Below are positions 30,714 through 45,892 of a stretch of 64,000 bases of DNA, piece after piece. The stretch's first letter is position 1; every line of letters begins with the position of its first letter. The notes beneath the pieces were generated by a model, which was not told the DNA's origin, ran no database searches, and saw only the letters and a program-made list of their open reading frames with translations. The DNA is from Ochrobactrum sp. RH2CCR150 (GTDB taxonomy: Bacteria > Pseudomonadota > Alphaproteobacteria > Rhizobiales > Rhizobiaceae), in NCBI GenBank assembly GCA_014138095.1, contig JACGXE010000011.1, positions 62,001 through 126,000 on the forward strand, in the 5' to 3' direction. The position numbers and the translations under genes were made by a program.

Positions 30714-31559
30714 CTATCGGGCCATGAATAGGGGCACTGGGCTATGTCTGAGCAAAGTTTCCGTTACACCGCCAAACAGCCTTTCTACCGTCTGCCCATA
30801 TTTGTATGCGCCCATGACGATCCAGTCGGCCTTCATTTTTTTGGCTTCCTTGATCAGTTGGCTTCCGATTGTTTCGTCAACCAGCAACTGCGCGTTCACT
30901 GTATCGCAGCTCACGCCCGCCTCCTTCAACTGACTGACAGCCCATTCGATTTCCAGCAATTGTGGCGAACCAATGCGTACCAGACGAACAGCACCCGCCT
31001 GACTGAGCCATGGAATTGCGGCTTGCAGGGCTTTTCTCGACTGCCTGGTATCCTTCCAGGCAATCATAATCCTACGCGGGTCACTCTGTCGGCACGTTGC
31101 CGGGACGACGAGTAAGGGAGTATTTAAATTGAAAAGGCAAACTCGCATAACCAGATTGCCGTAACTTTCATCTTCATTGGCTGGACGAGCAATAACGTTC
31201 AGCGCTGATTGCTCGCTGTATTTCGGCAAAACCTCTTCCCATTTGCCCTCTTCTTCAGACCAACTCGGATATTGTCTGGGGCTGACGGTGTTGAGCCAGT
31301 TCCCATATATTTTTTTGAGGAACCTGCTTTCCTCGATGGCTTCCATATCTATTTCACGCTCGACCTCCCGGGGCAGGATCTGTTCAGTTGGCAATATTCT
31401 CCGTATCGCCGGAACACGAACATGTAACACTTCAATTGCGGGATGCTGAAGAACCCTGCTGGCCATATCCGCTGCCTCAAGGCAGGCAATGGCACCGCGC
31501 CGCTGCGGCAGGATTGCGACTATGCTCTTGCCGTACATATCAGGTCTGTGGATCATCAT
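30714..31559 (-). CDS. Tandem universal stress protein (UspA family)
   Basis: 281-residue protein with two Usp folds. The second (about 155-280) has the ATP-loop pattern MGAYKYGQTVERLFGGVTET and ends SPVPLFMAR. The first (1-150) is more diverged. It is the last gene of the minus-strand unit headed by the fluoride riboswitch at 34236-34291 (eno, 43-aa peptide, CNNM-like, Usp). Usp genes are among those repeatedly found under fluoride riboswitches, so a role in fluoride stress is an inference from context. It lies 41 nt downstream of the CNNM gene. Confidence 0.88.
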   Translation of the reverse strand: MMIHRPDMYGKSIVAILPQRRGAIACLEAADMASRVLQHPAIEVLHVRVPAIRRILPTEQILPREVEREIDMEAIEESRFLKKIYGNWLNTVSPRQYPSWSEEEGKWEEVLPKYSEQSALNVIARPANEDESYGNLVMRVCLFNLNTPLLVVPATCRQSDPRRIMIAWKDTRQSRKALQAAIPWLSQAGAVRLVRIGSPQLLEIEWAVSQLKEAGVSCDTVNAQLLVDETIGSQLIKEAKKMKADWIVMGAYKYGQTVERLFGGVTETLLRHSPVPLFMAR

Positions 31560-31600
31560 AACCTCTCACTCGAACGTCATTCACAAATTGATATTCGGCA

Positions 31601-32668
31601 TTATGGCTCGCCTTTTTCTGCCCATTCGTCTCGACGTTCCTTGTGACTGTCGAGCCGGTCTTTTCTTATCTTCACGATAGCGGGCCTGAGCTGTGCGACT
31701 TCTTCTGTCTCATCAGTGATTGCAAAGCCCAGAAGCGCTTCAAACAAATCTTCCAAGGTGACAATCCCAGTGCTGATACCATCGGCGTTGACGCCGCCAA
31801 TTGAATCGCCTGATCCTAGAAGCCATTCGATAGCTTCGTTGATTTTCAGCGTATCGGGAAGCTGGGGCAGGGGGTGTGCGAAGAAACCGAGTTTGCGGTC
31901 TTTCACAGGGTCTTTAACCAATGCAAACAGGACTTCCCGCTGATTAGCATATTCGAGCAATGTGCTGCTGTCGCCGGAATGCAAGGGAATACGGGCAAAC
32001 GACAATATGTCAGGTGTTTCGACTAACGAATGCGCAGGCATATCCTTGTCGAGGGAAAGAACCGTATCAATGGGCGTCTGAATATCCTGCAGAACCACTT
32101 CGTGGGCAAACAACATATGCGAGATGACGTGAGATTCACTCGATGCGATCGCGCCTGTGGAGGGAACATTCGAAATATATCGGGCAAGTCCGGAACGAGT
32201 GATTGCGCTGGCTTCTGAACTTTTCATCCATCGCGTTATCAGGCGTGAAACTAGCAAGACAGGCCACAAGATTTTCATCAGAAATGATAAGATTCTTCCG
32301 ACAGGCCCGGCCAAAGCCGCTGCATGGGTTGTGGCATAGGTTTTCGGTGCGATTTCTGACAGAAAGAGGAGCAACACGGTCAGGACTGCGGAAGTAATGC
32401 CGATTCCCAGATCGCCCCAGACCCTCGCGGCATGGGCCCCGACAAACCCGGGGCCGACCGTAGCTGCAAGCGTGTTGATGATAAGAATGGTGCTGATTGC
32501 ATCGCCAATCCTCTTTTGCTTGATGGCAAGCAACTGTCGGACACCTTTCACCTCCTGATGTTCAATCAGGCCAGTGATGCGAACGCTTAACAGGACGCCT
32601 TCCATAAACGAACACATTGCGCATGCGATTATGGAAAACATCGCCCACAGGACTATGCTGATAATCAA
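31601..32668 (-). CDS. CNNM/CorC-like membrane protein with CBS pair
   Basis: 355-residue protein. The N-terminal DUF21/CNNM domain (about 1-145) has three to four helices, with the acidic helix motif LFLSEIAPKTYAT (about 101-113). Two CBS motifs follow (about 190-310), the second ending TGIVTLEDLFEALLG. The family handles Mg2+ or Na+ across the inner membrane. The start is TTG 32668, five bases after GGGAGGAC and immediately after the stop of the upstream 43-aa peptide. It is cotranscribed with enolase under a fluoride riboswitch; since fluoride binds Mg2+ at enzyme sites, Mg2+ homeostasis is a plausible role. Confidence 0.85.
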   Translation of the reverse strand: MIISIVLWAMFSIIACAMCSFMEGVLLSVRITGLIEHQEVKGVRQLLAIKQKRIGDAISTILIINTLAATVGPGFVGAHAARVWGDLGIGITSAVLTVLLLFLSEIAPKTYATTHAAALAGPVGRILSFLMKILWPVLLVSRLITRWMKSSEASAITRSGLARYISNVPSTGAIASSESHVISHMLFAHEVVLQDIQTPIDTVLSLDKDMPAHSLVETPDILSFARIPLHSGDSSTLLEYANQREVLFALVKDPVKDRKLGFFAHPLPQLPDTLKINEAIEWLLGSGDSIGGVNADGISTGIVTLEDLFEALLGFAITDETEEVAQLRPAIVKIRKDRLDSHKERRDEWAEKGEP

Positions 32669-32800
32669 TCAGTCCTCCCTTGCTCGCTGTCGCTGATCGG
32701 TCCTGATGCGGACAGATCGCAATTCCGAATTGCTTAACAGGATTGCCATTGGTGCTAACACGGCGACGCCAATGACGAATTCGACCATTGTTTCAAACAT
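32669..32800 (-). CDS. 43-aa single-pass membrane peptide in the enolase operon
   Basis: Small gene between enolase and the CNNM-like gene. ATG 32800 has AGGAG 6 nt upstream and its TGA (32669-32671) directly abuts the TTG start of the next gene, so the two are probably coupled. The peptide has one membrane segment (about 8-23, FVIGVAVLAPMAILLS) followed by a basic tail with RTDQRQRARED. Not recognised; it could be a small partner of the CNNM-like transporter. Confidence 0.65.
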   Translation of the reverse strand: MFETMVEFVIGVAVLAPMAILLSNSELRSVRIRTDQRQRARED

Positions 32801-32833
32801 GATCAGCTCCTGATCTGGTATTGCCGGACCGCT

Positions 32834-44633: not shown

Positions 44634-44644
44634 GATTCCTCCAT

Positions 44645-45058
44645 TTACCGGTTGATCCGCTGTGCGATAATGAAACCAACCGTAGCAGCGGCAAGAGAAC
44701 AGAACACAAGGGCACATAAATAGAATGCGGCCAGCGGCACGTTGCCTTTCAACAGAAGCAGGAACGTGTCGAGGCTCATGGATGAGAATGTTGTGAAGCC
44801 ACCGCAAATCCCGCCCATAACGAATTGGCGCTTTGCTGGTCCAACGAACCATCGCCCTTCGGGTCCCGTCACGGTCGCAAAGAACATGATGATGAAGGAC
44901 CCGACGATATTGACGAATGATGTGCCCCACAAGGGGTTGGCATCAAGGACGGCGATGATGATCCATTCGGAGAAGAACCGAAGGAATGAGCCGATTGCCG
45001 CGCCACAGCCCACAGCCAGATAAAGCCTGATATCCTCTGCCTGCCGCCAGTTTCTCAT
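44645..45058 (-). CDS. crcB: CrcB/Fluc fluoride channel subunit 2
   Basis: 137-residue four-helix membrane protein. Family motifs: GCGAAIGSFLRFF, WGTSFVNIVGSFIIM with the pore Asn, and GGICGGFTTFSSMSLDTF with the Phe-box region and Na+ site. ATG 45058 shares one base with the TGA of crcB1 (TGATG), so the two are coupled. Adjacent unequal copies normally form a heterodimeric, double-barrelled Fluc channel that lets cytoplasmic F- leak out. Confidence 0.93.
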   Translation of the reverse strand: MRNWRQAEDIRLYLAVGCGAAIGSFLRFFSEWIIIAVLDANPLWGTSFVNIVGSFIIMFFATVTGPEGRWFVGPAKRQFVMGGICGGFTTFSSMSLDTFLLLLKGNVPLAAFYLCALVFCSLAAATVGFIIAQRINR

Positions 45059-45456
45059 CAGAACTGCTCCGCCATCCAGAGAACACCGCCATATCCGGCG
45101 GCGACCGCGAACACACATAAGAGGGCGGATGCAACGATGTTGAACAGGGCTTGTCGCCGTTCACCATCCAGCATGAGATTGAGGCTTTGCAGGCAGAATG
45201 AAGAGACGGTCGTATAGCCACCTAGAATGCCGACCATAATAAAATCGCGAAACGCGTCAGTTGCAAAAATGCCACCGAGCCCTATTCCGAGACCCGCCCC
45301 TATCCCGATAACGAATGTACCGCTCACATTGACGGCAAAAGTACCCCAGGGAAATGTCTCGCCGACCCGGCGGCTCACATAACCGGAAAGGAAAAAACGC
45401 AGAATGCCGCCGATAAAGCCGCCAATCAGAACCAGAAGTGAAGCTTCAATGCTCAT
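45058..45456 (-). CDS. crcB: CrcB/Fluc fluoride channel subunit 1
   Basis: 132-residue four-helix protein: GGFIGGILRFFLSGY, WGTFAVNVSGTFVIG and GILGGYTTVSSFCLQSLN. Differences at the third motif (YTTVSSF here against FTTFSSM in the partner) fit the division of labour in heterodimeric Fluc channels. It lies 109 nt after the DUF190 gene at 45566. No fluoride riboswitch was found upstream of this operon. Confidence 0.93.
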   Translation of the reverse strand: MSIEASLLVLIGGFIGGILRFFLSGYVSRRVGETFPWGTFAVNVSGTFVIGIGAGLGIGLGGIFATDAFRDFIMVGILGGYTTVSSFCLQSLNLMLDGERRQALFNIVASALLCVFAVAAGYGGVLWMAEQF

Positions 45457-45565
45457 GCATTTGGATTTCTTCGAAGGGTGAAAACGAGGCGGGTGGAAAG
45501 TGACTGTCCAGTTAAAAATACATCATAAATCAGCGTCTTAGAAGATGTTCAATGCCGAGTTTCCT

Positions 45566-45892
45566 TCACGATCTCTGGAGTACGTTGGCTTTCTCAAGTG
45601 TCATTATGCAATTCTTGATCATTTGTTTCGATAGCCGGAGGAAGCCCTGGAGATTTTCCTTCGTGTCGACAATTTCAATAATGACAGGATAGTCCTGTGG
45701 CTGCCAGAAAGCCGTCCCTGCGTGCCGGATTGTCGAGCGCCCGTAGCCGAGTTGTCCGCGCAAAACCGTAGCTCCGCCCATATGTGCCAGGCGAGCTTGT
45801 TCCACGATGGCTTCATAAAGAGGACGGTTGTCGAACTGATCACTTTCGCCCAGAAAAATCCGGAGAAGGGAAGCTTCCGTAAATCCAATCAT
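45566..45892 (-). CDS. DUF190 protein (first gene of crcB operon)
   Basis: 108-residue DUF190 protein from ATG 45892, which has GGAG 8 nt upstream (a TTG at 45910 is the alternative). It contains LLRIFLGESDQFDNRPLYEAIVEQA and GATVLRGQLGYGRST, close to the copy at 44283. It probably opens the operon DUF190-crcB-crcB-DUF190. Confidence 0.87.
   Translation of the reverse strand: MIGFTEASLLRIFLGESDQFDNRPLYEAIVEQARLAHMGGATVLRGQLGYGRSTIRHAGTAFWQPQDYPVIIEIVDTKENLQGFLRLSKQMIKNCIMTLEKANVLQRS

What the first reader, a model, noticed from the sequence alone, without database searches (positions are those of the whole stretch)
30714..45892. Fluoride-resistance island with five fluoride riboswitches in 8 kb
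Five crcB-motif aptamers (34236-34291 minus, 34384-34432 plus, 38650-38704 minus, 38888-38937 plus, 42207-42257 plus) head five transcription units that include enolase, CLC-F, MutS-like ATPases, Nudix, Usp and phosphoglycerate mutases; a crcB/DUF190 operon adjoins them. Seen directly: the conserved GGxGATGGxGTTCxCC and CTGATGACTCCTAC blocks. Known: crcB, eriC-F, eno, mutS and usp genes recur in fluoride-riboswitch regulons. Such a dense multi-switch cluster is unusual and looks like a mobile or assembled resistance island.
Basis: partly seen in the sequence, partly recalled or inferred. Interest (0 to 1): 0.85.

Follow-up and report, generated by a model that had tools for sequence, protein, structure and literature searches.

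The report
Plasmid-borne fluoride defence island
A plasmid-like DNA molecule of a bacterium carries a tight cluster of fluoride-sensing RNA switches that appear to turn on a fluoride pump and spare copies of fluoride-sensitive enzymes, in a more elaborate form than the islands described before.

Summary
Confirmed. All five sites match the Rfam fluoride riboswitch above its cut-off (62.7, 47.6, 47.5, 44.3, 42.0 bits; cut-off 34) within 8.03 kb. They head enolase, an ABC ATPase with two phosphoglycerate-mutase-like enzymes, a CLC-F exporter, a MutS-like pair, and Nudix. A crcB/DUF190 operon without a detected switch adjoins.

The contig carries repABC and a MobA/MobL relaxase, so the island sits on a plasmid-type replicon. 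A discrete insertion was not shown.

In all five leaders the aptamer's 3' end can pair with the region just before a start codon, predicting translation ON with fluoride (weakest for enolase). For clcF that start opens a 24-codon leader ORF ending in ATGA over the clcF start. The same layout occurs in three other records. Four switches form two back-to-back divergent pairs, a layout that recurs elsewhere. Four of five aptamers resemble most the same gene's aptamer in another genome.

The MutS pair occurs in many phyla, with fluoride-switch hits in 58 of 80 loci. It lacks the mismatch-binding domain and has Asn for the Walker-B Asp in both subunits. Known kind of island; new variant in these features.

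The parts
34234..34296 (-). fluoride riboswitch aptamer heading enolase
   Evidence: RF01734 42.0 bits, cut-off 34; nearest to the eno aptamer of G027
34185..34217 (-). 10-codon leader ORF whose start lies 4 bases after the predicted helix; ends before enolase, no overlap
32834..34123 (-). second enolase (the genome has another on contig C9, 57% identical)
   Evidence: TIGR01060 636.8 bits, cut-off 300
31601..32668 (-). CNNM-family membrane protein
   Evidence: PF01595
30714..31559 (-). universal stress protein
   Evidence: PF00582
34297..34375 (.). 79-base gap between back-to-back aptamers, with a promoter-like site on each strand (34331-34359 +, 34322-34294 -)
   Evidence: 2 found, 0.2 expected
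34376..34436 (+). fluoride riboswitch aptamer heading ABC-PGM-phosphatase
   Evidence: RF01734 47.5 bits
34480..35370 (+). orphan ABC ATPase, nearest MlaF
   Evidence: PF00005; MlaF model 173 bits, below cut-off 441
35367..35996 (+). 2,3-bisphosphoglycerate-dependent phosphoglycerate mutase
   Evidence: TIGR01258 202.6 bits, cut-off 81.7
36010..36627 (+). histidine phosphatase, CobC/PspA-like rather than a clear mutase
   Evidence: best model TIGR03162 133.4 bits, below cut-off 162.9
38645..38726 (-). fluoride riboswitch aptamer heading clcF, with internal inserts
   Evidence: RF01734 44.3 bits
38540..38614 (-). 24-codon leader ORF under the clcF riboswitch; its TGA overlaps the clcF ATG (ATGA)
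36699..38543 (-). CLC-F fluoride/proton antiporter with C-terminal DUF190 domain
   Evidence: PF00654 and PF02641 both over cut-off; nearest solved chain 6d0j
38881..38940 (+). fluoride riboswitch aptamer heading mutSa-mutSb
   Evidence: RF01734 47.6 bits
38966..40609 (+). MutS-core ATPase subunit a (Walker B N454-E455, numbered from 38960)
   Evidence: PF00488; alignment A4; fold
40606..42159 (+). MutS-core ATPase subunit b (Walker B N407-E408)
   Evidence: PF00488; alignment A3; fold
42200..42260 (+). fluoride riboswitch aptamer heading Nudix
   Evidence: RF01734 62.7 bits
42298..42981 (+). Nudix hydrolase, RNA-pyrophosphohydrolase-like
   Evidence: NF001938 192.1 bits, cut-off 116
43008..44261 (+). 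MFS transporter
   Evidence: PF07690
44283..44633 (-). DUF190 protein
   Evidence: PF02641
44645..45058 (-). CrcB (Fluc) subunit
   Evidence: PF02537
45058..45456 (-). CrcB (Fluc) subunit, second of a pair
   Evidence: PF02537
45566..45892 (-). DUF190 protein
   Evidence: PF02641; PDB 2dcl, 1o51
2421..7049 (+). MobA/MobL relaxase with helicase and BID domains: mobility gene of the replicon
   Evidence: PF03389, PF13604, PF17841

Best explanation
This is a fluoride-resistance island on a repABC plasmid-type replicon. Fluoride (with Mg2+) folds five aptamers. The 3' end of each aptamer, which without ligand can pair with the ribosome-binding region just downstream, is then held in the aptamer, and translation starts. 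Five transcripts, four of them from two divergent back-to-back regions, then make: the exporter CLC-F (the adjoining CrcB pair lacks a detected switch), spare copies of lower-glycolysis enzymes (enolase, phosphoglycerate mutase), phosphate-handling enzymes (a histidine phosphatase, Nudix), a stress protein, and a MutS-like ATPase pair of unknown target. For clcF the switch acts one step removed: it controls a 24-codon leader ORF, and ribosomes ending there restart on clcF through the ATGA overlap. DUF190, fused to CLC-F and encoded beside CrcB, is probably a regulatory or assembly part of both exporter types. Shown computationally: aptamers, gene families, replicon type, possible leader pairing, overlap. 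Inferred: fluoride binding, direction of control, reinitiation, gene functions.
For: Five RF01734 hits over cut-off. Gene families. CLC nearest to solved CLC-F chains (208.7 bits) against 28.8 for a Cl-/H+ exchanger. The helix between the aptamer 3' end and the region before a start codon scores better than most of 2000 shuffles in all five leaders (p about 0.0035 Nudix, 0.0035 mutSa, 0.008 ABC, 0.019 clcF, 0.029 eno), with the start codon 4-8 bases after the helix. No terminator-like site in the three regions scanned, which do not cover the whole eno and clcF leaders. Leader ORF with ATGA overlap before clcF in the window (24 codons), G027 (25) and pSinA (22, GTG start), and before a cation:proton antiporter on pEL-ars1 (25). 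In a strict count, 8 of 16 short ORFs at a predicted ATG are so coupled against 3 of 38 control ATGs (Fisher p 0.0012). Comparable annotated plasmid regions: pSinA, pAtCFBP6624, pEL-ars1, pYLL2. Published analogue: in E. cloacae FRM a riboswitch operon ppaC-uspA-eno-gpmA-crcB-orf5249 on island GI3 is fluoride-induced (eno 176.9-fold by RNA-seq) and contributes to resistance (PMC5533749, passages).
Against: No expression or binding data. For eno the helix uses only the last two bases of CUCCU and is the weakest of the five; its leader ORF does not overlap eno. G185 clcF has no ATGA-coupled leader ORF. The own-genome crcB switch on contig C2 shows no such helix (p 0.45), so platforms differ within one genome. 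In the strict count 133 of the 162 hits were entered, the rest being mostly weak; 18 of the 133 lacked CTCCT and were dropped; of the 115 left, 72 had no ATG at the predicted place and fell out, 27 opened the gene directly. A looser test gave 24 of 44 coupled against 93 of 292 controls, the controls being contaminated by starts in the same frame. The crcB/DUF190 operon has no detected switch. Contig ends do not overlap, so a closed plasmid is not shown.
Confidence: 0.85

Rival explanations
1. The five switches work by transcription termination, as many fluoride riboswitches do, and the pairing with the ribosome-binding region is incidental, because CUCCU is complementary to any Shine-Dalgarno sequence.
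For: Weinberg 2010 reports predicted terminators overlapping many crcB motifs (PMC2864571, passages). A 5-base match to AGGAG is built in.
Against: No terminator-like site in the three regions scanned (eno and clcF leaders only partly covered). The helices extend over 8-12 positions and beat most shuffles that keep the 5' arm, with a start codon 4-8 bases after.
Confidence: 0.1
2. The region is not an acquired island but an ordinary locus of a stable chromid that happens to be dense.
For: No transposase or integrase family among the window ORFs scanned; GC of 31-46 kb (0.50-0.57) is like its contig (0.545).
Against: Of 35 genus genomes only the own one matches the left-flank gene, and among 34 genus-mates only G027 has several switches; the contig has a relaxase; related genes sit on many plasmids.
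Confidence: 0.2
3. The MutS-like pair is a DNA-repair system against fluoride-linked DNA damage.
For: MutS core fold, with human MutSbeta and E. coli MutS among the best structural matches; Weinberg 2010 named mutS and suggested DNA-damaging stress (passages).
Against: MutSb starts almost directly with the core domain: about 15-20 residues precede it, too few for the mismatch-binding domain, and most E. coli MutS rows align from about residue 260 (row 7ai7 from 81). Scores are far below the MutS, MutS2 and KamC cut-offs. MutS2, reported to split stalled ribosomes (PMC10897456, listing), fits about equally well.
Confidence: 0.3

Closest known systems
Genomic island GI3 of Enterobacter cloacae FRM (PMC5533749; passages read)
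   Same: Fluoride riboswitch over usp, eno, phosphoglycerate mutase, crcB; island with transposases, taken by its authors as horizontally acquired.
   Different: One reported switch and six genes in one operon, with ppaC; here five switches, CLC-F-DUF190, MutS pair, Nudix, ABC ATPase, and no ppaC among the genes identified.
Fluoride region of plasmid pEL-ars1, Enterobacter ludwigii (NZ_CP094842.1)
   Same: MutS pair, eno, phosphoglycerate mutase, Usp, CrcB, CLC and DUF190 on a plasmid typed conjugative; three R1 hits.
   Different: CLC and DUF190 are separate genes; has a DHHA2-domain protein and a cation:proton antiporter; two of its three R1 hits are weak (22.6, 21.8 bits).
   Same: Seven switches in about 19.3 kb over mutSa-mutSb, clcF with DUF190-like end, eno, Usp, MFS.
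   Different: Adds a respiratory-complex/hydrogenase-like operon; different gene order.
ppe2 B12 riboswitch of M. tuberculosis (PMC11260477; abstract and section headings)
   Same: A riboswitch controls a translated leader ORF; the gene is made mainly by termination-reinitiation.
   Different: Different ligand, an OFF switch, other organism; shown by experiment there, only predicted here.

Membership tests
Fluoride riboswitch (RF01734) | covariance-model score over the curated cut-off | tested here: met
   5 of 5 sites, 42.0-62.7 bits, cut-off 34
Fluoride riboswitch (RF01734) | lies upstream of a gene on the same strand | tested here: met
   5 of 5
Fluoride riboswitch (RF01734) | binds fluoride and changes expression | not testable with these tools
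   needs in-line probing and reporters
CLC-F fluoride/proton antiporter | closer to CLC-F than to Cl- exchangers | tested here: met
   6d0j 208.7 bits, 3ejz 28.8 bits
CLC-F fluoride/proton antiporter | CLC-F selectivity motifs (GNNLI and GREGT; labels recalled) | tested here: met
   both strings in all six rows of the alignment
CLC-F fluoride/proton antiporter | transports fluoride | not testable with these tools
   -
E. cloacae GI3-type fluoride island | riboswitch with usp, eno, pgm and crcB in one locus | tested here: met
   crcB here without a detected switch of its own
E. cloacae GI3-type fluoride island | flanking transposases | tested here: inconclusive
   none among the window ORFs scanned, but not all ORFs were scanned; the gap 45.9-48.6 kb was only read by eye, and a gene at 48596-49408 has sub-cut-off HTH_23/HTH_38 matches
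DNA mismatch repair MutS | mismatch-binding domain I before the core | tested here: not met
   MutSb core alignment begins at model residue 13-23, leaving no room for domain I; for MutSa about 50-60 residues precede it, the first 41 of low confidence
DNA mismatch repair MutS | score over NCBIfam cut-off | tested here: not met
   70.5 and 83.8 bits, cut-off 480
MutS2 | score over NCBIfam cut-off | tested here: not met
   60.3 and 74.6 bits, cut-off 400
KamC reactivase ATPase | score over NCBIfam cut-off | tested here: not met
   44.3 and 76.8 bits, cut-off 300
repABC replicon | adjacent repA, repB, repC in one direction | tested here: met
   contig C11 3435-7116, Pfam RP-C, RepB, AAA_31
repABC replicon | closed circular plasmid | tested here: inconclusive
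   contig of 133,638 bases, ends do not overlap

The most novel reading that the evidence does not exclude
Two parts of a general fluoride defence may be unrecognised. First, a two-subunit MutS-core ATPase that does not do mismatch repair: with Asn for the Walker-B Asp (a Mg2+ ligand, recalled) in both subunits it may keep working when Mg-fluoride-phosphate complexes poison ordinary ATPases, and may remodel a fluoride-jammed target such as a stalled ribosome, a nucleic-acid complex or an inhibited enzyme. Second, exporters metered by a switch acting on a leader ORF with restart over ATGA, with DUF190 as a shared control part of both exporter families.
Probability: 0.3. Interest if true: 0.8.

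Novelty: new variant of a known kind. Interest (0 to 1): 0.55.

Why it matters
Fluoride resistance matters for oral care, industrial fluoride and microbes that break fluorinated chemicals. The cluster shows which parts a heavily equipped cell brings together, suggests how one ion can switch five transcripts by translation, and gives testable leads on two poorly explained genes of the fluoride regulon: the 'mutS' gene noted in 2010 (PMC2864571, passages) and DUF190. Related gene sets were also seen on plasmids of Pseudomonadota and Actinomycetota.

Tried and rejected
Megablast of the island against 72,556 plasmids: no match. The 59 relatives and the genomes were searched for switches, not for the whole island; in G027, the genus-mate with most switches, the pieces lie on three contigs. 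Empty-site search by flank: the left-flank gene has no DNA match in 34 genus-mates, and the right flank gave only short matches outside the own locus, so no empty site could be drawn. 'Local duplication made the five switches' is not supported for four of them, whose best matches among 24 aptamers are the same gene's aptamer in G027; the Nudix aptamer is nearest to its mutSa neighbour (0.80), so a local copy is possible there. An organofluorine-degradation role: 20 further window proteins show no dehalogenase family (not every ORF scanned). Papers: none of the 10 listed of 85 held 'fluoride resistance' together with MutS; none of the 8 listed of 134 held 'fluoride riboswitch' (terms on leader peptides and coupling); of 12 listed of 131 one held DUF190. 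These are listings only, so absence from print is not claimed. Baker 2012 (Science) is not held and was not read. That E. coli MutS D693 is the Walker-B Asp, that it binds Mg2+, and the Mg-fluoride idea are recalled; PDB entry 3k0s (MutS D693N) appears, and a paper on magnesium coordination in MutS was seen only as a reference-list entry. The search for papers on KamC found nothing of use.
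Full report
The genome (5.54 Mb, 40 contigs; window = contig C11, 62001-126000) has one more, on contig C2, in front of a crcB gene. The cluster spans 8027 bases.

Genes. From left to right: Usp, CNNM, enolase (minus strand, one switch); ABC ATPase, phosphoglycerate mutase, histidine phosphatase (plus, one switch); CLC-F with a C-terminal DUF190 domain (minus, one switch); mutSa-mutSb (plus, one switch); Nudix then MFS (plus, one switch); DUF190-CrcB-CrcB-DUF190 (minus, no switch found). 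The enolase is a second copy, 57% identical to the one on contig C9. The CLC protein scores 208.7 bits with a solved CLC-F fluoride/proton antiporter and 28.8 with a chloride exchanger.

How unusual. Of 60 genomes searched (own included) 19 had a match; of the 34 genus-mates among them 17 had one, sixteen with a single hit over the cut-off and G027 with nine. A CrcB match lies next to the switch in all 16 single-switch loci, in one of them in two frames. Of 397 genomes drawn from the order (own included) 57 had a match and 49 a match over the cut-off; apart from the window's own genome only G185 had more than two. Both searches used stricter filters that lose weak matches. Dense clusters do recur elsewhere: seven hits in about 19.3 kb in G185 and seven hits of my own model R1 in a 10.8-kb contig of an Acidiferrales assembly. 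So the density is rare, not unique.

Replicon. Contig C11 carries repA, repB and repC side by side, with a Resolvase-family gene nearby, and the window itself a MobA/MobL relaxase at 2421-7049. The three best RepC matches among plasmid records are on Ochrobactrum replicons at 52-55% identity, so the organism is probably of the Ochrobactrum/Brucella group (inference); no tool named it. The contig ends do not overlap. MutSb has relatives on 48 plasmid records, 21 typed conjugative, and plasmid enolases are common (335 records at E <= 1e-60, not shown to be fluoride-linked). Six plasmid stretches were fetched, three picked from the enolase search and three from the MutSb search. Five carry annotation, and each of these has enolase and Usp with CrcB or a CLC gene; two of the five also have the MutS pair. 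The sixth, from Caballeronia, has no annotated features.

Assembly from cassettes. In G027, contig C18 repeats clcF, two divergent switches, mutSa, mutSb, Nudix, MFS and the DUF190/CrcB operon at 62-81% protein identity, contig C24 has CNNM-enolase and a phosphoglycerate mutase around another divergent pair, and C32 has the ABC ATPase and the second phosphatase, a second DUF190/CrcB operon and two more pairs. Pairwise identities of 24 aptamers put four of the five window aptamers nearest to the same gene's aptamer in G027 (ABC 0.90, eno 0.86, clcF 0.84, mutSa 0.82); the fifth, Nudix, is nearest to the window's mutSa aptamer (0.80), and no switch was found before Nudix in G027. In C32 an eno-type aptamer and leader, with what reads by eye like an enolase N-terminal remnant, now precedes a Usp gene. 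The island was therefore probably put together from gene-plus-switch units.

Back-to-back switches. Two of the window's gaps hold divergent aptamers, 79 and 154 bases apart. In the window, G027 and G185, 16 of 22 switches stand in such pairs, and 16 pairs with gaps of 82-303 bases occur in the 80 genome loci, one of these being G027 again and four resting on hits under 25 bits. The 79-base gap has one promoter-like site on each strand; none was found in the other two regions.

Expression platform. In all five leaders the end of the aptamer is complementary over 8-12 positions to the region before a start codon, which follows 4-8 bases later. Against 2000 shuffles that keep the 5' arm the p values are about 0.0035 (Nudix), 0.0035 (mutSa), 0.008 (ABC), 0.019 (clcF) and 0.029 (eno); the own-genome crcB leader gives 0.45. 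In four the paired arm holds CUCCU or UCCU; in eno it starts two bases before the end of CUCCU, so the case is weakest there. As CUCCU is part of the folded aptamer (established knowledge, recalled), fluoride should free the ribosome-binding region. A translational fluoride switch has been used before in archaea (statement in PMC11077080, passage).

Leader ORFs. Before clcF the freed start is not that of clcF but of a 24-codon ORF (38614-38540) whose TGA overlaps the clcF ATG. G027 clcF has 25 codons and ATGA; pSinA clcF 22 codons, GTG start and ATGA; the cation:proton antiporter of pEL-ars1 25 codons and ATGA. The peptides look unlike each other, which points to coupling and not to a peptide function (inference). 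G185 clcF does not show it. A strict count: 133 of the 162 hits were entered, mostly leaving out weak ones; 18 lacked CTCCT; of 115 leaders 72 had no ATG at the predicted place, 27 opened the gene directly, and of 16 short ORFs 8 were ATGA-coupled to an ORF of 100 codons or more, against 3 of 38 other ATGs (Fisher p 0.0012). A looser count gave 24 of 44 against 93 of 292 with a contaminated control. The enolase leader opens a 10-codon ORF that ends 61 bases before the enolase start.

DUF190. It is fused to CLC-F in the window, G027, pSinA and pAtCFBP6624 (over cut-off) and G185 (23.1 bits, cut-off 23.4), and is a separate gene overlapping the CLC gene in pEL-ars1. With its place beside crcB this links DUF190 to both exporter types.

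Verdict. Ordinary in kind, a fluoride-resistance island, but a rich variant with clear, testable features. Fluoride response, reinitiation, the MutS target and DUF190 function are inferred.

Noticed in passing
L101:5874-6139 (Lucifera butyrica): Three fluoride aptamers in tandem on one strand within 266 bases (33.9, 48.6, 34.9 bits; the first just under the cut-off of 34), plus a divergent pair about 2.8 kb away.
   Followed up: partly
L136 (Acidiferrales assembly, 10.8 kb): Seven fluoride-switch hits of model R1 on one short contig.
   Followed up: no
L032:12382-13607: Enolase-type switch and leader with what looks like an enolase N-terminal stub in front of a Usp gene, a trace of cassette exchange.
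   Followed up: partly
G027 (UBKJ01 assembly): Listed as the same genus as the window, but all readable sampled stretches but one have GC 0.63-0.69 (the other 0.57), against 0.54-0.58 in four sampled stretches of the window's genome. Placement or assembly may be doubtful.
   Followed up: no
L065:5926-13308 and L032:5752-8868: Respiratory-complex/hydrogenase-like subunit genes under a fluoride switch beside the same island genes; not seen in the window's island.
   Followed up: partly
window 2421-7049: The relaxase has a BID domain near its C-terminal end.
   Followed up: no
L181:4068-19418: Annotated plasmid fluoride region next to arsenic resistance genes in Enterobacter ludwigii pEL-ars1; pSinA and pAtCFBP6624 also place theirs beside ars genes.
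   Followed up: partly
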